Source of the DNA: Acidobacteriota bacterium
GTDB taxonomy: Bacteria; Acidobacteriota; Vicinamibacteria; Vicinamibacterales; UBA2999
Length of the DNA: 64,000 nt
NCBI GenBank assembly: GCA_030650395.1
Contig: JAUSDY010000074.1
Span: forward strand, 113,926-177,925
Direction: 5' to 3'
Shown: positions 213 through 64,000 of the stretch, one piece after another
Numbering within the stretch: the stretch's first letter is position 1
Layout: every line of letters starts with the position of its first letter
Program-made: the position numbers and the translations under genes
Notes under the pieces: model-generated
Database searches by the model: none
The model's input: only the letters and a program-made list of their open reading frames with translations
Told to the model about the DNA's origin: nothing

Positions 213-1990
213 TGCTTGGCCCCGAGCGAGCGAGGCGAGTCGAGGGGGGCCGACCCCACGGTCGGATCGAAGCGCATGTAGAGCGGCACCGTCACCAGCA
301 GGTGCGCGCGCGCCCGGATCGTCGAGGCGGGCTTGCCTGCGGAATCGGGCGTGTATTTCGCCACGATCCATACGTCGCCGATGTTGTTGCGACTGCCCTT
401 GCGGCTTGGGTTTGGCCCGTCGACATTCGGCGTGAACCGCCCGGTTGCGGCGTCCAGCGTGCCCACGAACCTGGCGTCGTCATCATCGTAGGTGGCGGCG
501 TACTCTTCCATGCTCCACGACGCGTCCACGAGCCCGAGATTGATGTCGTCGGCCGTGTCGGCGCGGCCGTCAACGCCGTTGTGGAACGCCCACGCTTCGA
601 ACTGCGCCAGCATCTTCGGGAAGGTGGCCCCGCCGACGCGGGCCATCGCCCAGTCGGGCTTCACCTTGATGCTGTCGATGCGATCGAACACGGCCAGCGC
701 TTTTGGCCGTGACGCGCCCGCCACGAACAGATCACGGACGCCGACCGCGGCGCCGCTTGCCACATCCACGATAACGGTAGCGAGATCCGGGGTCACCGAC
801 GCAATCCGCGAGACCGTGAGGCCCGGACCCAGATCGATATCCGCTGGACGCAGCGCCGCTGGCAGGTTGGCGCCGTAGATCTTCAGCTCCTGCCCGGTGG
901 AGCCCGCACGGAGCGCGGCGCGATCGGTGCCAAGCAGCCGCGGCTCGGATCCGGCCCGTTCGAGCCGGATGTCGAGACCCACTTCGTCGTAGCCGCCCAT
1001 GAACCAGCGCCCTTCCATCTGGCGCCAGTCGCGATCGACGAACATCACTTCGCGCAGCGCCGTGTCCTGGCTGCCGCCGGCCGTGGAGCGCCCGCGCCAC
1101 TGGTATCCGGTATAGACGACCGAGCGGCCGGTGCGCGTGACGGTTTGCCCCGTGCGCGCGATGCGATAGGTCATGTTGGTCGTGAACTCGTCCGGCGCGC
1201 CTGTCACCGGCGCAATGACGACACTGCCGTAGATGGCGCCTTTGCCAAGGTCCCATCCACTGAGCGTCCACGTGCCTTCGAGCCGGGCGGGACGCATCGT
1301 CGCCGACCACGCCGTCCACTCCGGTGTCTTGAGCGGAAAAGTCCTGGCGAGGTGATCGACCGCCTTCTCAACCGGCTGGCGCAAGTCGGGAGGGCGTCCA
1401 TCAGACGCGGGATCGCGCGGCGGCGGGCCGTTGCGGCGGAACGCCTGATTGTCGACCAGCGGATACCAGCCGCGGTGCATCGCGATCAGCAGGTCCCATT
1501 CACTCTTGGTGCGGCGCTGCGAGATGACGCGGCCCATCGAGTGGCACTTGATGCACACCGCCTCGGTGTCGGCGCTCGCGGTGTACTTGTAGTCGATGCC
1601 GCGCCGTTCCACTTCCCACGCGGCGGGCTTGGCCTCTTCAGGCGCGAGCCCGAGATTGTTGGCCAGGTACTTGACCACTTCGCGCGCGGTCGCCGGATCG
1701 ATCTGCAAGCCGTTCAACGCCGCCATGCGCTGCACGGTCGACTGCCAGCCTTCGGGCGTTTGCCGCTGGAACGAGATCCGCGACATTTGACCTTTGTCGT
1801 CGGCGCGGTGGCACGACCCGCAGGCTTTCTGCACGGTTTGATTGGTGATCGGGATGCCGTCTTCCGGCTTCGCGGTTGGAGCCGCACCCGGGGCGGTCGG
1901 AGTTGCCGCCTGTTGGGTGGACACGGCATTGACGAGCAGTGTGACCAGCAGCAGCGTTATCCCGATGAGCGCACGGGTTGCAGTTATCAC
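209..1990 (-). CDS. qhpA: Quinohemoprotein amine dehydrogenase alpha subunit (diheme)
   Basis: A 593-residue exported protein with an N-terminal hydrophobic signal segment (residues 5-22). Two c-type heme sites are visible: CGSCH at 57-61 and CIKCH at 146-150. These match the diheme cytochrome domain of the QhpA/PeaA alpha subunit, followed by the beta-sandwich domains of that family. The C-terminal segment around WAFHNGVDGRADTADDI is typical of the subunit. In the periplasm it takes electrons from the cysteine tryptophylquinone gamma subunit during oxidative deamination of primary amines and passes them to a cytochrome or azurin. It lies between qhpG upstream (gap about 100 bp) and qhpD downstream (ATGA overlap). 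The gamma and beta subunit genes are not in the window and would be expected further left. Confidence 0.88.
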   Translation of the reverse strand: MITATRALIGITLLLVTLLVNAVSTQQAATPTAPGAAPTAKPEDGIPITNQTVQKACGSCHRADDKGQMSRISFQRQTPEGWQSTVQRMAALNGLQIDPATAREVVKYLANNLGLAPEEAKPAAWEVERRGIDYKYTASADTEAVCIKCHSMGRVISQRRTKSEWDLLIAMHRGWYPLVDNQAFRRNGPPPRDPASDGRPPDLRQPVEKAVDHLARTFPLKTPEWTAWSATMRPARLEGTWTLSGWDLGKGAIYGSVVIAPVTGAPDEFTTNMTYRIARTGQTVTRTGRSVVYTGYQWRGRSTAGGSQDTALREVMFVDRDWRQMEGRWFMGGYDEVGLDIRLERAGSEPRLLGTDRAALRAGSTGQELKIYGANLPAALRPADIDLGPGLTVSRIASVTPDLATVIVDVASGAAVGVRDLFVAGASRPKALAVFDRIDSIKVKPDWAMARVGGATFPKMLAQFEAWAFHNGVDGRADTADDINLGLVDASWSMEEYAATYDDDDARFVGTLDAATGRFTPNVDGPNPSRKGSRNNIGDVWIVAKYTPDSAGKPASTIRARAHLLVTVPLYMRFDPTVGSAPLDSPRSLGAKQ

Positions 1991-2094
1991 GGCTTCCTCT
2001 CAGGTCAGACCATCACCACATCACCTAGCGGAGCGTATCAACGATTTCGCGCGTACGACCATCGTCGCTCGGCCAACGTTTTGGATGGCGTGGG

Positions 2095-55252: not shown

Positions 55253-55893
55253 TTAGAACCACAGTTCGACCGGTGTCGTGCGGCCGCTGCCTTGTGTGAG
55301 CACGGTTTCGCGCGCCACAATCGATCCGGCCTGCGGGTTGCTGCGTTTGATCACCTGAATGTGGTGCAGTCCCATGGGCACGACATCGAACACGAACGGC
55401 GAGACCGCATCACTGAGCGAGGTCTCGGTGCCGCCATTCGAGTAGTAGAGCGTCACGTCGTAGCCGGCCGGGTCGACGACCGTCTTGTTCGACACGATCG
55501 TCTTCACCGTGACAATCACGCGGCCGGTGATGAGCGGCGGCGATGGCGGATACACCACGTCGTCGGCTGTGCCGGCGGCGCCATCCGGCCCGGCGCTGCG
55601 GACCTGTCCCGTCGACGCGCCCGTATACGCCCGTCCAAATTCATCGGACAGGTAATCGGTCTGGGATCGGCCGACGTTGACATACGGGCCTCTCCACCCC
55701 ATGCCCACCTGGCCCTGCGTATTGGTGGTGTAGAGGGGCAGACCTCCGGGTTGGACCAGAGCGGCAAAGGTATCTGGGAGGCGCCCCATGCCGGCGCCAG
55801 AGCGGTGGCCAGCACGGCGAGGACCGCAATGATGATGATCAGTTCGATCAGCGTGAAACCGCCGCGCGAGTTGCGTTGTTGCCGCTTGATCAT
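55253..55893 (-). pseudogene. GspG-like pseudopilin with internal deletion and frameshift
   Basis: The ATG at 55893 overlaps the GspF stop (ATGA) and gives a good prepilin start, RGGFTLIELIIIIAVLAVLATALAPAW. The frame then fails; a second frame from 55789 continues as MGRLPDTFAALV, GWRGPYVNVGRSQTDYLSDEFG and GPDGAAGTADDVVYPPSPP plus a beta-rich tail (VTLYYSNGGTETSLSDAVSP). Comparison with the intact paralogs on the plus strand shows that the roughly 40 residues between the hydrophobic helix and GRLPxxxxxLV are missing. It is the fourth member of the same pseudopilin family. Confidence 0.75.
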
Positions 55894-56746
55894 CGGATCC
55901 CCCTCAGCAGACCGAACATCGGCAGGTAGAAGGCGAGCGCCATCACGACAAAGACACCGGCGAGCACGACCAGCATGATCGGCCCGAACAGCGTCAACGC
56001 CTGCTTGATCGTCCGATCGACCTCGCGATCGAAATAGCGGCTCACGTTCGCGAGCGACTGGCTCATGCGGCCGGTCCGTTCGCCGAGCGCAATCATGTTG
56101 ATCACCACGGGCGGGAACTCGCCGACGCGCTGAAGCGCGCTCGACAGCGAGTCGCCGGCCATCACGCGGTCGACCGCGCGGCGGAACTGTTGCGACAAAT
56201 ACGCGTTGCCGAACAGCCGTTCCATCAGCGCGAGCGACGGCGCCACCTCGAGGCCCGCCTCGTGCAGCGTGCCGAAAAAATGCGCGAACCGCGAGAATGC
56301 CACCTTCCGCAGCAGCTCTCCGACCACCGGCAGGTGCAACAGCCATCGGTCGCTGCGAATCGCACCGGCGGGCTTCTGCCGGTACAACCGGACACCAACG
56401 ACGGTCGTGATCAGTGCGGCGATCCCGACGTCCCAATAGTTGCGAATGACGCTCGACACGACCATCAGGGCACGCGTCGGCAGCGGCAACACGACGGTAC
56501 TGCCGAGACGCTCGTAGATCTGCAGGAATTTCGGAATCGTGAAGCCGACCAGGACCACCGCGAGCGCACTCAGCACGAGCACCACGAGGATTGGATACGT
56601 CGCCGCGTCGCGGATGCGGCTGGCGAGCTCCTCCTGCCACTCGAGTTGTCGGGCCAGATCCTCGAGCGTGGCGTCGAGTTTGCCGCTGGCTTCGCCCGCC
56701 TTGACGATGTTGACGTACAGGTCGTTGAACGCCTTGGGGTGGCGCA
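55890..56746 (-). pseudogene. GspF/PulF inner-membrane platform protein, N-terminally truncated
   Basis: The frame reads RHPKAFNDLYVNIVKAGEAS, ATLEDLARQLEWQEELASRIRDAATYPILVVLVLSALAVVLVGFTIPKF, and continues to YLPMFGLLRGIR. These are the second half of the first GspF domain and the whole second domain (FSRFAHFFGTLHEAGLEVAPSL...GERTGRMSQSLANV). About 110 N-terminal residues are absent, and upstream the frame joins directly to the GspE fragment with a frame change. It overlaps the pseudopilin by ATGA. Confidence 0.75.
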
Positions 56747-57730
56747 GAGAGCGGCGCGCAGGGCCAGCTGCGCCGTTTCCGCATCGCGGATCTCGCCCAC
56801 CATGATCACGTCGGGATCCTGGCGCAGCAACGAGCGAATCGCGGCGGCGAAGGTGAACCCGGCCTTGGGCCTGATCTGCGTCTGGCGAATCGACGGCAGA
56901 TGGTATTCGACCGGATCCTCGACCGTCAGAATGTTCTTCTCGCGGGTCGCCAGATAGGCGAGCGCCGAATAGAGCGTGGTCGTTTTGCCGGCGCCGGTCG
57001 GGCCGGTCACCAGGATGATGCCGCGTGATTTCGCCAGCAGATCACGGAACGTGGCGTAGTGCGCCGGGTTGAACCCGAGCTCTTCCAGGCCGCGAATCAG
57101 CGTGTCGATGGCCAGCACGCGGATCGCCACCTTCTCACCGAACGTGGTGGGGAAGGTCGCGATTCGCAGATCGACCCGCCGTTCGCCGATCTCCTGCGTG
57201 ATGCGGCCATCCTGCGGCATGCGCTGCTCCGAGATGTCGAGGCCCGCCATCACTTTCAGACGGCTGATCAGCGCCGCGTGCAGTTCCTTGGGAAAGGTCT
57301 CCCCCGCAGTCAGCACGCCGTCGATGCGGTAGCGCAGCCGCACCAGCCGCTCCTCGGGTTCGATGTGCAGGTCGGTGGCGCCGCGCGCGATCGCGTCGTT
57401 CAGCAGCAGCTCGATCAACTTCACCACCGGCGATTCGGCGACGGCGCCGTCGGTCAGCGGCTGATCGAGTGACGCGAGGCCGGCCTGCACCAGCGCGTCG
57501 ACCTCGCCGCGATCGAGGTAGGAGCGTTTGAGCAGATTCAGGACGTCCGACCGCGTCGCGCACTCCACCTCGATGTCGCGGCCGGTGAGGCGCTGCAGCT
57601 CGTCGATCGCGATGACGTCGAAGGGGTTCGACTGGATGATGCGCAGCGCCGAGTCGGTCAGCGCCACGGGCGCGATCAGATGCTGGCGCGCAAACGCCTC
57701 CGGCACCAGCGCGATGGCATGCGGACGCGT
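56747..57730 (-). pseudogene. GspE/PulE-type secretion ATPase, truncated at both ends
   Basis: About 325 residues. N-terminal MshEN/GspE-N2-like part ALVPEAFARQHLIAPVALTD, then SSE-type core: LIELLLNDAIARGATDLHIEPEERLVRLRYRIDGVL, Walker A VTGPTGAGKTTTLYSAL, Asp box TVEDPVEYHLPSI and the Walker B region DPDVIMVGEIRDAETAQLALRAAL. It stops exactly there: the His box and C-terminal third are missing, and the start is joined to the histidine kinase fragment. Confidence 0.78.
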
Positions 57731-58065
57731 TGGTGTGTGGCTGAGGTGCGGGGAGCACGAGGGTGAATGTGGTACCCGTCGCCGGGTCGCTCGCGACCTC
57801 GATCTGCCCGCCCTGCGCGTTGATGATGTGTCTGGCAATCGCGAGCCCCAGGCCGGTGCCCCCGGCCTTGGTCGTGTAGAACGGCACAAACAGCTGTTCC
57901 CGCTGTTCAGGGGGAATATAGGAACCGGCTGGCGGACGAAGGAGACCGTCTCGGCCGCAAGGACGGCGAGATCGACGTCCTCGAGAACCGACGCCGCGGG
58001 CGATGACAAGAGCAGCAGATCCTCGACCAGTCGATTCAGCCGATCGATGGCGGTGAGCATGGCAC
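57731..58065 (-). pseudogene. Histidine kinase, two joined fragments
   Basis: Reading on the minus strand from 58065: AMLTAIDRLNRLVEDLLLLSSPAAS and VDLAVLAAETVSFV is the end of a HisKA domain. After a frame change near 57925 comes SYIPPEQREQLFVPFYTTKA, GGTGLGLAIARHIINAQGGQIEV and GTTFTLVLPA, the end of the HATPase domain. The N-box between them and everything upstream are lost. Confidence 0.7.
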
Positions 58066-60097: not shown

Positions 60098-60790
60098 ATG
60101 ATCAGCCGGAGCCCTAAAGTGTTCTCACACAAGAACGCGCAACAGCGCCGACAACGCGGCTTCACGCTGATGGAAGTCGTCATCGTGCTCGCGGTGATCG
60201 GGGCCTTGTCGGCCGCCCTCGCGCCGATGGCCTTCAGCTATCTGGCGGACGCGAAGAAAACGCAGGCGCAGAACGACGCGAACCGCATCGCCGAAGCGAT
60301 CGGCAAGTTTCTCCAGGACGTCGCGCTCCCGCCCTACAAGAACAACACGAGCAGCACGAAAAGTCAGGTCAAACAGTCAGGCGACTTCGACTGCCTCTAC
60401 AGTCTGCTCGGGAACGACTACACGATCGCCACCGACGCGACGACGGGCGCCTCGTGGACAACCAGCGCGGGAGTCCAATGCCAGGCGGGAAGCGCGACGC
60501 GCGACACGCTCGAAAACCATCTGATCAACAATACGCCAGCCGGCGCGTCCGCCAACGCGTATGTCACCACGGGCAAGATCGCGTGGAAGGGGCCCTACCT
60601 GCCCTCGCTCCCCGCCGACCCGTGGGGCAACAAGTACGTCGTCAACATCGGCAAGTCGGACCCCGGCGCAAGCAAGGCGGTCTGGGTGATCTCCGCCGGC
60701 TCTAACGGCAACATCGAGACCGCCGCGGACGCAAGCGCCAGGTCTTCGATCGACCCAAGCGGCGACGACATCATCGCGCGTGTAAAATAG
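60098..60790 (+). CDS. Type II secretion/type IV pilus pseudopilin (GspG-like)
   Basis: 230 residues from the ATG at 60098 (the track start at 60020 lies in the promoter). Prepilin cleavage motif RG/FTLMEVVIVLAVIGALSAALAPM with Glu at mature position 5. The rest is an extended helix (AKKTQAQNDANRIAEAIGKFLQD) and a C-terminal beta region with WKGPYLPSLPADPWGNKYVVNIG, as in GspG major pseudopilins. The final loop (SDDIIARVK-like SIDPSGDDIIARV) could bind calcium. First gene of the array, 15 bp before the next. Confidence 0.82.
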   Translation: MISRSPKVFSHKNAQQRRQRGFTLMEVVIVLAVIGALSAALAPMAFSYLADAKKTQAQNDANRIAEAIGKFLQDVALPPYKNNTSSTKSQVKQSGDFDCLYSLLGNDYTIATDATTGASWTTSAGVQCQAGSATRDTLENHLINNTPAGASANAYVTTGKIAWKGPYLPSLPADPWGNKYVVNIGKSDPGASKAVWVISAGSNGNIETAADASARSSIDPSGDDIIARVK

Positions 60791-60805: not shown

Positions 60806-61684
60806 ATGGAGTCCACGGGCCGCCGCGGCGCTCACGTTGCCTCGAGTGACGGTTTTGCGTTGATCGCGCTCGTCATGGTGCTCGGCGCGCTCATCGCGAT
60901 CGTCCTCGTCGTGAGCCCGCAAATCCTTCTCGGCATCACGGTGTCCAAGGAGGACGAGACACGCCGGCAGCTCGCGCTGCTCGTGCGGGCCATCGCCGGC
61001 ATTCCCGGCAACCCGGGCGGGTTCGTCAGCGACCTGGGCCGGCTGCCGAAGAGTCTCGAGGAGGTGAACAGCACGTCGGGTACGCAGACGCTCTGCGATG
61101 CCGCGTTCAATCCGAGCGCCGTCAACTACCACCGCGTCGATGGCGCGACCGAGCATCGCGGCTACGTGTCGATGGGGTGGAACGGGCCATACCTCAAGGA
61201 GATCTTCGCCGCCGGCGATTTCCTCCTTGACGCGTGGGGACAGAAGCTCCAGTACACTTGTCCGCAGACGACGAAGCCCGCGACAGACCCGACCACGAAC
61301 GGCCGGGCGCTCACGCTCCGCACCGGCCTGATCACGAGCGCGGGCGCCGACGGCGCCTTTGGCACCCAGGACGACATCCTGTCGGACACGTTCAACGACA
61401 ACGGACACATCTTCCTCACCGTGACAATCGGCCAGAGTCAGGCAACGCCGATTAGCGTCACGGTGTCGCTGTTCTATCCGCTCAACGGCGAGCAGACCAG
61501 CCTGTCGAGCGCTCCAACTACGCTCGATACCGCCGAGGGTAGCCAACAGCTCGTGGTCTTCCAATCGGTTCCTGCCGGAATTCGCTTCATCGAAATCTAC
61601 ATGGGTAACTTTAGCGAGTCGGTTCACCTTGGGTACAATGCGAACGTCGCGAACGCGGCGTCGTACATCCTGCCGATCCGTTGA
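60806..61684 (+). CDS. Pseudopilin-like protein with C-terminal beta domain (lacks Glu5)
   Basis: 292 residues. SDG/FALIALVMVLGALIAIVLVVS is a prepilin-like N-terminus but position 5 is Ala instead of Glu, as in minor tip pseudopilins. Then helix (SKEDETRRQLALLVRAIAG), the family landmark FVSDLGRLPKSLEEVN, GWNGPYLKEIF, DAWGQKLQYT and SAGADGAFGTQDDILSD (GspG-like Ca site). A C-terminal domain of about 100 residues (VTVSLFYPLNGEQTSLSSAP, FQSVPAGIRFIEIYMG) has a beta-sandwich look. Paralog of the two genes that follow. Confidence 0.75.
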   Translation: MESTGRRGAHVASSDGFALIALVMVLGALIAIVLVVSPQILLGITVSKEDETRRQLALLVRAIAGIPGNPGGFVSDLGRLPKSLEEVNSTSGTQTLCDAAFNPSAVNYHRVDGATEHRGYVSMGWNGPYLKEIFAAGDFLLDAWGQKLQYTCPQTTKPATDPTTNGRALTLRTGLITSAGADGAFGTQDDILSDTFNDNGHIFLTVTIGQSQATPISVTVSLFYPLNGEQTSLSSAPTTLDTAEGSQQLVVFQSVPAGIRFIEIYMGNFSESVHLGYNANVANAASYILPIR

Positions 61685-61687
61685 GTC

Positions 61688-62575
61688 ATGAGTCACGTGT
61701 TGATGCAGAACGGTCGTGACCGCGAGCGATCGGGAAGCGGCCGGGGATTCGGCCTCCTCGAAACGGTGGTGGCTCTCGCCATCGTCGCCGCTGCCGTGGC
61801 GCTCGTCGCGCCGGCTCTCGCGGGGATGACGCGGCGGAGCACCGAGACGTCGACGCAACAGCAGGAGCAAGATCTCAACACCGCGATCTTCGGCGCTCCG
61901 TGGGGCGGGACCTTCGGCTTCACCGGCGACGTGGGCCGGCTCCCGACGAGTCTCACCGAGCTGGTGAGCCAGGAGAGCCTCCCGGCGTTCCACACCGCCG
62001 ACGGCGCGACCGCTCACATCGGGAACGTCGGCTACGGCTGGAACGGCCCGTACCTCGGCGGGCTCTTTTCGAACGCGAATCTGGTCACCGACCCGTGGGG
62101 TCAGGCGTTTTCGTACGCCGGGACTGGCGCCAGCGCGGGTCGAGTCATCAGCGGAGGCGCCGACGGTACCGTTGGGACAACCGACGACGTCGCGTTTCCG
62201 TTTTATGCGCCCGCCACGACGGGGACGCTCTTCGTCGTCGTGGTCGTTAACGGCATCGCCAACCCGCTCGGAGTCGCGGCGAAGGTGTACTACCCGGTCA
62301 ACGGTGAGCAGGCGGTCACGGCGACGCAAAAGTTCGACCCCAACGCTCCCAATTCCACGTTCGACGGCTTCGCGTTCACCAGCGTGGTGCCCGGCGTCCG
62401 TGTTGTCGTCGCCACGCATACGGACGTCGGTGGTGGTGGCGGCAGTTGCTCCACGACTTCGCGGACCGTGCCCATTTCGATCATCCCAGGCCAGACCAAT
62501 ATCGTCCAGATCGCGATCACCACGATGGCCCAGGCGAGAGTGCTTGGGGCCTACCAGTGCACGATCCCGGATTGA
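61688..62575 (+). CDS. Pseudopilin-like protein with C-terminal beta domain
   Basis: 295 residues, starting 3 bp after the previous stop. RGFG-type cleavage: G/FGLLETVVALAIVAAAVALV with Glu5. Landmarks: TGDVGRLPTSLTELVS, GYGWNGPYLGG, TDPWGQAFSYAG, SGGADGTVGTTDDVAFP, then a C-terminal domain VKVYYPVNGEQAVTATQKFD-like, ending GGGGGSCSTTSRTVPISIIPG. Same order of landmarks as its neighbours, so it is a tandem duplicate that has diverged. Confidence 0.78.
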   Translation: MSHVLMQNGRDRERSGSGRGFGLLETVVALAIVAAAVALVAPALAGMTRRSTETSTQQQEQDLNTAIFGAPWGGTFGFTGDVGRLPTSLTELVSQESLPAFHTADGATAHIGNVGYGWNGPYLGGLFSNANLVTDPWGQAFSYAGTGASAGRVISGGADGTVGTTDDVAFPFYAPATTGTLFVVVVVNGIANPLGVAAKVYYPVNGEQAVTATQKFDPNAPNSTFDGFAFTSVVPGVRVVVATHTDVGGGGGSCSTTSRTVPISIIPGQTNIVQIAITTMAQARVLGAYQCTIPD

Positions 62576-62585
62576 GTCAATTCCT

Positions 62586-63398
62586 ATGAGCCCTCGGCTG
62601 GCGGCGCGGTACGAACATGGATTCACCCTCATCGAGATCGTGATCTCGCTCGGCGTCGCCGCGGCGCTGGCCGCGCTCCTCGGCGTCGCCGTCTCGCGGG
62701 CGCTGCAGTCGGTGAAGGAAACGCAGACGCAGCAACAGGTGCAGCAGACCTTCAACGCGATCGTCGGCAGCAATCCGGCGCAGGGCAACTTCGGCTTCCT
62801 CGGCGACATGGGCCGGCTGCCGGCCACTCTGACAGAGCTGGTGACGCAGGGGGCGCAGGTGGCCTATCACACCACCGGCAACATCGGTAACGTGGGAACG
62901 GGCTGGCGGGGCCCCTATCTGACTGCGCCGTACGCCACGATCGACATCTTCAAGGACTCCTGGGGCCAGTCGCTTACGTATACCAACACCGGCATCAGCG
63001 CTGGCCAGATTGTGAGTGGCGGTGCCGACGGTGCCGACGGCGTGGTCGGCAACGCGGACGACGCGGACAACATCATCTTTCCGGTTCAGCTTCCGGTCAA
63101 GACCACCGGGACGCTCAACGTCACGGTCGTCGTCAACACGATCGCCCAACCGACGGGACTCAGCGTCAGCGTCTACTCCACCAGCGACGGTAATCAGGGC
63201 ACCGCCGTGACGCAGACGAGGGCGGCGGCGGGCCCGGTGCCGTTCATGTTCACCGTGCCCCACGGCGTCACCGTCATCGTGGCCACGCACACAGCGGGCA
63301 CCATCACGGTCACGCGGACGGTCACGGTCCAAGTGGCGGCTGGCACTCAGATCGCGACCACGATTCAGATGTCGACCAGCGCGACGGTGACGATGTGA
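62586..63398 (+). CDS. Pseudopilin-like protein with C-terminal beta domain
   Basis: 270 residues from the ATG at 62586 (the track start at 62172 is in the previous gene). HG/FTLIEIVISLGVAAALAALLG with Glu5. Landmarks: LGDMGRLPATLTELVTQ, GTGWRGPYLTAP, DSWGQSLTYTNTG, SGGADGADGVVGNADDADN and a Thr/Val-rich beta domain (VTVVVNTIAQPTGLSVSVYS...TVTRTVTVQVAAG). Last gene of the array. Confidence 0.8.
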   Translation: MSPRLAARYEHGFTLIEIVISLGVAAALAALLGVAVSRALQSVKETQTQQQVQQTFNAIVGSNPAQGNFGFLGDMGRLPATLTELVTQGAQVAYHTTGNIGNVGTGWRGPYLTAPYATIDIFKDSWGQSLTYTNTGISAGQIVSGGADGADGVVGNADDADNIIFPVQLPVKTTGTLNVTVVVNTIAQPTGLSVSVYSTSDGNQGTAVTQTRAAAGPVPFMFTVPHGVTVIVATHTAGTITVTRTVTVQVAAGTQIATTIQMSTSATVTM

Positions 63399-63696: not shown

Positions 63697-64000
63697 ATGT
63701 CGGTAATGGTCGGTCGGCTCCTGGGCGAGTGTCTCGTCGCCGGAGGTGTCTTCACCCAGGATCAGCTCGAGCGCGCGTTGCGCGAGGCCAAAACGTCCGG
63801 CGAGCTGCTCGGCCAGACGTTGATCAGGCTCAAGTTGGCGACCTCTGACGACATCCTGTACGCCCTCTCCCGGCAGGCCGGCGTCGAGGTCGTGGACCTC
63901 GACACGATTCAAGTGGACCCCGCGGTGGCTCGCAGTTTTCCGGAGGCGTTTCTTCGCAAGGAGCGGCTGCTCCCGCTCAAGCGTGACGGCGGCTCGCTCA
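63697..64000 (+). CDS. GspE/PilB-type assembly ATPase, N-terminal domain (partial)
   Basis: 101 residues from the ATG at 63697, running off the window. RLLGECLVAGGVFTQDQLER, ALREAKTSGELLGQTLIRLK and DDILYALSRQAGVEVVDLDT is the MshEN/T2SSE_N domain of GspE, PilB and MshE ATPases; in MshE it can bind cyclic di-GMP. The catalytic ATPase lies beyond the right edge. With the pseudopilins it indicates an intact assembly locus next to the broken minus-strand one. Confidence 0.8.
   Translation, partial: MSVMVGRLLGECLVAGGVFTQDQLERALREAKTSGELLGQTLIRLKLATSDDILYALSRQAGVEVVDLDTIQVDPAVARSFPEAFLRKERLLPLKRDGGSL

What the first reader, a model, noticed from the sequence alone, without database searches (positions are those of the whole stretch)
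60806..61684. One array member lacks the conserved Glu5
Seen: mature N-terminus reads FALIA instead of FTLIE/FGLLE, whereas the neighbours keep Glu. Known: Glu5 is conserved in most pilins but absent in GspK-type tip subunits. Inference: this paralog may be the initiating or tip subunit within the family.
Basis: partly seen in the sequence, partly recalled or inferred. Interest (0 to 1): 0.5.

Follow-up and report, generated by a model that had tools for sequence, protein, structure and literature searches.

The report
Pilin lacking the Glu5 assembly residue
One of four neighbouring pilus-subunit genes in a Vicinamibacterales-type bacterium has lost two polar residues that subunits normally use to dock onto the filament above them; the same loss recurs in related gene clusters, which suggests that this subunit is the first one, at the filament's tip.

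Summary
Confirmed. The gene at 60806-61684 (g2) encodes a prepilin whose predicted mature start is FALIA: Ala at position 5, and also Ala at position 2. Its co-directional neighbours g1, g3 and g4 keep Glu5 (FTLME, FGLLE, FTLIE). It is not a private mutation: the only clear ortholog found (53% identity, a Vicinamibacterales MAG) reads FALVG. In the wider GspG-type family, 8 of 11 genomes or clusters with two or more "long" members have a Glu5-less one, against 0 of 19 single-copy genes. A tree of the globular domains places the Glu5-less members separately, each next to a Glu5-bearing paralogue, so Glu5 was lost several times or the heads were homogenised by gene conversion. Contig overlap puts the array upstream of an MSHA-like machine (MshEN-type ATPase, PilN/O-like proteins, MshL-like secretin). 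Best explanation: g2 is the first (cap) subunit, working like GspK/PilX without belonging to that family. Against: g2 is neither the last gene nor the largest, three clusters keep Glu5, and the genome encodes ordinary PilX-type caps elsewhere. The tip role is inferred, not shown.

The parts
60098..60790 (+). g1: short GspG-type prepilin, mature N-terminus FTLME (Glu5 kept); likely major-subunit type
   Evidence: Pfam T2SSG 3.1e-08 and N_methyl 5.9e-08; NCBIfam GspG 4.2e-16; orthologue in G036 array. Start chosen at ATG 60098; the ORF opens at TTG 60020
60806..61684 (+). g2: the finding; GspG-derived prepilin FALIA lacking Thr2 and Glu5; C-terminal beta-sandwich-like extension
   Evidence: ortholog FALVG 53% identity; Pfam T2SSG only E=0.052, no N_methyl match
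60854..60868 (+). codons of mature residues 1-5 (F A L I A); Ala2 60857-60859, Ala5 60866-60868
   Evidence: sequence
61688..62575 (+). g3: long GspG-type prepilin FGLLE (Glu5 kept)
   Evidence: Pfam T2SSG 6.9e-06; sister of g4 in tree
62586..63398 (+). g4: long GspG-type prepilin FTLIE (Glu5 kept)
   Evidence: Pfam N_methyl 5.1e-05, T2SSG 6.7e-05
63697..64000 (+). N-terminus of the GspE/MshE-type assembly ATPase; continues on contig C142 (79-bp exact overlap with the window end)
   Evidence: Pfam MshEN 4.3e-11; overlap and continued ORF; GspE 5.5e-157 on C142

Best explanation
g2 is the first (cap/initiating) subunit of the type IV filament assembled by an MSHA-like machine encoded immediately downstream. 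It is made as a class III prepilin and cut after Gly16 (inferred). Lacking Glu5 and Thr2, it cannot neutralise or grip the N-terminal amine of a subunit above it, so it can only be the subunit with none above. Its free N-terminus can still accept Glu5 of the next subunit (g3, g4 or g1), so it seeds polymerisation and stays at the tip. It thus works like GspK/PilX/ComGG, but it comes from a duplicated GspG-type pilin, not from the K family. Shown: residues, conservation in the ortholog, recurrence, genomic context. Inferred: processing, position in the filament, seeding role.
For: Ala2 and Ala5 in g2, Ala2 and Gly5 in its ortholog. 8 of 11 tandem clusters or genomes have a Glu5-less member versus 0 of 19 single-copy long genes (Fisher p 2.8e-05, not corrected for kinship). 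In 6 of the 8 it is the last pilin gene of its run (G036 twice, G303, G211, G614, Omnitrophota L073). L073 is a GspE-GspF-PilMNO operon with no H/I/J/K-type pilins recognised in it. Ala2 accompanies loss of Glu5 in 5 of 8 long members, against 2 of 103 Glu5 pilins; PilX-type caps of the same order also have Ala2 (29 of 30 loci; the script looked for Ala2, so this is a recovery rate). Own genome: the C34, C107 and C171 pilus clusters each also contain one Glu5-less prepilin (VALIL, VALIV, YAMAA). Literature: the subunit without Glu5 caps the tip (PMC10191384, PMC9934059, PMC10628169, PMC10790768); a Glu5-substituted TcpB still starts pili but no longer supports retraction (PMC5207764).
Against: In the window g2 is not the 3'-terminal gene and is no larger than g3 (276 against 275 mature residues), unlike the published signature of first subunits. 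G415, G287 and G610 keep Glu5 in both long members. The G036 C57 pair sits close to an H-I-J-K-like set that has its own Glu5-less K, and the G036 C18 array holds a second Glu5-less member (LINTT), so 'exactly one per cluster' fails. Canonical PilX-type genes exist elsewhere in this genome and in most relatives, so a cap may already be available. Only one ortholog, from one MAG. The structure model is too weak to use (mean pLDDT 56.6).
Confidence: 0.55

Rival explanations
1. g2 is a duplicated pilin that no longer enters filaments: it stays in the inner membrane as a regulator or accessory of the machine, with constraint on Glu5 relaxed.
For: The alpha1 segment is the least conserved part of g2 against its ortholog, while the globular domain is more alike. 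Some family members have no prepilin motif at all (L012:6724-7665), showing the head can exist off the filament. Canonical PilX-type genes are present elsewhere.
Against: The prepilin cleavage site and hydrophobic helix are intact in both orthologs; loss recurs in unrelated lineages and tends to go with Ala2, which is not what random decay would give.
Confidence: 0.25
2. g2 is an ordinary shaft or near-tip minor pilin in which Glu5 is simply dispensable.
For: Residues 6-25 of g2 still look like Glu5-type GspG pilins, not like PilX/K caps (log-odds -25); Pro22 is kept; the head is of the same family as g3 and g4.
Against: 96 of 106 family members keep Glu5, so the residue is under strong constraint in this very family; Glu5 of the shaft subunit TcpA is needed for efficient assembly (cited in PMC5207764).
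Confidence: 0.12
3. On the evolutionary side: the Glu5-less alpha1 is an old, single invention, and gene conversion has since homogenised the globular heads within each cluster, giving a false picture of repeated loss. (Compatible with the cap role.)
For: Heads of each Glu5-less member are closest to the paralogue beside it, which concerted evolution would also produce; FAL-x-small is shared by the window, G172 and G036 genes.
Against: G303 (IVLLQ), G211 (ITLIG), G614 (VSLLS) and L073 (YAFIL) share little beyond lacking Glu5; alpha1 is too short (about 25 residues) to test.
Confidence: 0.2

Closest known systems
GspK / PilX / PilK (K-type cap of the H-I-J-K tip complex)
   Same: Lacks Glu5, has Ala2, one per gene cluster as a rule, inferred first subunit
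   Different: No GspK or PilX_N match; globular head is GspG-type with a C-terminal extension; residues 6-25 score as Glu5-type pilins
GspG major pseudopilin / T2SSG family
   Same: Head motifs MGWNGPY, D-x-WG, SAGADG...DD; profile of the family finds solved GspG structures (5wda, 1t92)
   Different: Glu5 and Thr2 lost; much longer C-terminus; below the Pfam cut-off on its own
Streptococcus sanguinis PilA
   Same: A pilin without Glu5 placed at the pilus apex (PMC9934059, PMC10628169): an independent example of the same solution
   Different: Small pilin without known homologues; monoderm system
MSHA-type (MSH) pilus system
   Same: Machine downstream: MshEN ATPase, PilN/O-like proteins, MshL-like secretin (TIGR02519 1.4e-67), AAA ATPase, TPR protein, GspF
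   Different: An NtrC-type response regulator and a sensor kinase are in the locus; an array of GspG-type pilins stands where the msh pilin genes would be

Membership tests
Type IV prepilin (class III signal peptide) | Short leader ending in Gly, then a hydrophobic helix | tested here: met
   MESTGRRGAHVASSDG|FALIALVMVLGALIAIVL; cleavage itself not shown
Type IV prepilin (class III signal peptide) | Glu5 | tested here: not met
   Ala5; no Pfam N_methyl match
GspG / T2SSG | T2SSG globular core | tested here: inconclusive
   Pfam E=0.052, 14.1 bits against a cut-off of 21; but grouped with g3/g4, which pass, with 99/96 support
GspK family | No Glu5 | tested here: met
GspK family | GspK/PilX sequence family | tested here: not met
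   No NCBIfam family matches g2; PilX_N finds only the C107 and C34 genes in this genome
GspK family | Larger than its partners and encoded at the 3' end of the pilin cluster (signature in PMC5207764) | tested here: not met
   276 mature residues against 275 for g3; second of four genes. The 3'-end position is met in six related clusters
GspK family | Located at the filament tip | not testable with these tools
   needs filaments; no complex modelling available
MSH system | mshE, mshG, mshL, mshM (mandatory with mshA, PMC6668835) | tested here: inconclusive
   Homologues on C1, C142 and C112: ATPase, MshL-like secretin (below full-length cut-off, split by a frameshift), AAA ATPase cut by the contig end (best match XrtA/PEP-CTERM-associated ATPase), GspF. 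C142-C112 join rests on gene order in G020, not on overlap

The most novel reading that the evidence does not exclude
In these bacteria the cap subunit of type IV filaments has been re-invented several times by converting a duplicated GspG-type pilin, through parallel loss of Thr2 and Glu5, into a first subunit that does the work of the H-I-J-K tip complex for MSHA-like machines.
Probability: 0.3. Interest if true: 0.65.

Novelty: new variant of a known kind. Interest (0 to 1): 0.45.

Why it matters
How filaments of this superfamily start, and why one subunit lacks Glu5, is known from a few systems, mostly with K-type caps. A family where closely related paralogues with and without Glu5 sit side by side offers natural matched pairs to test whether loss of Glu5 (and Thr2) is what makes a pilin a first subunit. 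It also gives a simple sequence rule for finding cap subunits in systems that lack a recognisable GspK.

Tried and rejected
Private mutation or sequencing error: rejected by the ortholog. N-terminus borrowed from a PilX/K gene: rejected, residues 6-25 score as Glu5-type. Glu5-less members as one clade by their heads: rejected (AU p 7.9e-40; the group was named after the tree was seen, and gene conversion is not excluded). Glu5-less GspG-type genes replacing a missing K: not supported, PilX_N is found in 15 of 17 genomes of both kinds; T2SSK hits are mostly small ORFs and uninformative. AlphaFold2 model of mature g2: mean pLDDT 56.6, only the helix (1-40) and parts of the C-terminal beta-rich domain are fair; Foldseek gave no hit at or below 0.001, so it is not used. 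One search was wasted: the classes of G415 and G303 are the same. Phage, plasmid and viral collections were not searched, being off the question.

Full report
OBSERVATION. The ORF at 60806-61684 (+) is 292 aa from ATG. It reads MESTGRRGAHVASSDG|FALIALVMVLGALIAIVLVVSPQ; with Gly16 at -1 the mature protein starts F1 A2 L3 I4 A5. The three co-directional neighbours read FTLME (g1), FGLLE (g3) and FTLIE (g4). The spacing of 15, 3 and 10 nt suggests one transcript. It missed that Thr2, the other conserved polar residue of the pilin N-terminus, is also Ala.

NOT A PRIVATE MUTATION. A protein search of 43 genomes of the family found no full-length ortholog, but a profile search of 193 genomes of the class and a scan of public genomes found one in a Vicinamibacterales MAG (Arabian11_MAG_46, contig JASLOY010000103.1, handle G172). 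It is 53% identical over the whole length and starts FALVG. A second copy in the same MAG (contig JASLOY010000402.1) has no readable pilin N-terminus because the assembly joins it, with a frame change, to a PilO-like start.

THE FAMILY. g1, g3 and g4 match Pfam T2SSG (3.1e-08, 6.9e-06, 6.7e-05), g2 only at 0.052. A profile of the g2 group finds solved GspG/PulG structures (5wda, 1t92, 2kep). Long members share the MGWNGPY and SAGADG...DD motifs and a C-terminal extension, which the weak model draws as beta-rich. In a tree of the globular heads without the N-terminal helix (34 rows), g2 plus its ortholog (100/100) group with g3 and g4 (99/96).

RECURRENCE. I read the N-termini of all long members in the loci fetched. 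Single-copy long genes: 19 of 19 have Glu5 (G035, G099, G121, G129, G130, G131, G133, G193, G208, G221, G365, G299, G443, G530, G555 twice on separate contigs, G621, L070, L072). Clusters or genomes with two or more long genes: 8 of 11 contain a Glu5-less one (window FALIA; G172 FALVG; G036 twice FALFG; G303 IVLLQ; G211 ITLIG; G614 VSLLS; Omnitrophota L073 YAFIL); G415, G287 and G610 do not (FALIE, LALIE, LALIE, where Thr2 but not Glu5 is gone). Fisher p is 2.8e-05, without correction for kinship. In six of the eight the Glu5-less gene is the last of the run; in the window it is the second of four. An independent count by a head-domain HMM, not by motif, gives 96 Glu5 and 10 Glu5-less among 106 readable members. 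Three of those ten are a further conserved Glu5-less type, LINTT, in G036, G107 and G020.

ONE ORIGIN OR SEVERAL. In the head tree the Glu5-less members do not group; each is near a Glu5-bearing paralogue of its own genome, and one clade is rejected (difference 236 log units, p-AU 7.9e-40). This means either repeated loss or gene conversion of the heads. The helix is too short to decide.

THE N-TERMINUS. Ala2 is seen in 5 of 8 long Glu5-less members and in 2 of 103 distinct Glu5 pilins of the same loci. PilX-type caps from the same order have Ala2 in 29 of 30 loci; the script looked for Ala2, so this is a recovery rate, not an unbiased frequency. Residues 6-25 of g2 score strongly on the Glu5-pilin side (log-odds -25), so the helix was not taken from a PilX gene; the resemblance to K-type starts is confined to positions 2 and 5. 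Thr2, Glu5 and Arg41 form a charged path in the core of a solved pilus (PMC10628169).

CONTEXT. The window ends inside a MshEN-type ATPase gene. Its last 79 bases equal the start of the reverse complement of contig C142, where the ORF continues. C142 then has a PilM/N-like and a PilO-like protein (by position and topology; no Pfam match), a GspC/PilP-like protein, a secretin best matched by MshL (1.4e-67, split by a frameshift) and the start of an AAA ATPase. C112 carries a TPR protein, an NtrC-type regulator, GspF and a sensor. The same order, ATPase - PilN - secretin - AAA - TPR - regulator - GspF - kinase - pilins, is seen in relative G020, which supports, but does not prove, the C142-C112 join. 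The system is therefore MSHA-like (PMC6668835 defines MSH by mshA, E, G, L, M).

OTHER GLU5-LESS PREPILINS OF THIS GENOME. C34 (PilX-like, VALIL), C107 (K-like, VALIV, after H, I, J-like genes) and C171 (YAMAA, after YTFVE and FTMIE genes behind a secretin) each have one. So every intact pilus cluster seen in this genome has one subunit without Glu5.

MECHANISM. Published work: Glu5 of an incoming subunit pairs with the N-terminal amine of the subunit above; only the first subunit can lack it; the capping K subunit, ComGG and S. sanguinis PilA lack it. TcpB with Glu5 replaced still starts pili but does not support retraction, read as failure to enter the growing pilus. g2 fits this. I put 0.55 on a cap or initiator role. 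The main doubts: gene order and size do not fit the published signature; some tandem clusters keep Glu5; one G036 cluster lies near its own K-like gene and the other G036 array has two Glu5-less members; ordinary PilX-type genes occur in the same genomes.

NOVELTY. Loss of Glu5 in a cap subunit is known, and an unrelated pilin doing the same is known (S. sanguinis PilA). What I did not find described in the papers searched is its repeated appearance within GspG-type arrays, beside Glu5-bearing sisters. This is a new variant of a known kind.

Noticed in passing
window 55253-58000 (-): A GspE-GspF-pilin module on the opposite strand looks decayed: the pilin's helix (FTLIE) and head lie in different frames with about 45 residues missing, GspF lacks part of its first domain, and GspE leaves its frame after the Walker B region. 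Intact versions exist in G035 and G099.
   Followed up: partly
L055 (G172:C336) 302-1605 (-): A second g2 paralogue is joined to a PilO-like N-terminus with a frame change, in a contig of about 3x coverage; gene fusion, pseudogene or assembly chimera.
   Followed up: partly
L013:2661-3500, L050:9688-10614, L065:1077-1901 (-): A conserved array member with the start GLINTTDLLVATAATVVLA: no Glu5, Asp at mature position 6, in three genomes; its role is unexplained.
   Followed up: partly
L015:8871-10169 (G000:C171) and L067:698-1795 (-): A conserved Glu5-less prepilin GYAMAALLV downstream of a secretin and Glu5 prepilins; no Pfam family.
   Followed up: partly
L012:6724-7665 (+): A long-type family head with a non-prepilin hydrophobic N-terminus (MAPRRLILAPLTVAIALTVAVLG), beside an array: the head used outside a filament?
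   Followed up: no
L163 (G000:C142) 374-2043 (-): The MshL-like secretin is split in two frames at a Gly-rich stretch; sequencing error or real break unknown.
   Followed up: no
L016 (G000:C112): An NtrC-type sigma-54 regulator and a PAS/HAMP sensor flank GspF, so the MSHA-like pilus may be under its own two-component control.
   Followed up: no
L048 and L049: Arrays of eight or more GspG-type prepilins in a row (FTLIE, MSLVE, VSLIE, ITLVE, ITIIE), all with Glu5: very large pilin repertoires.
   Followed up: no
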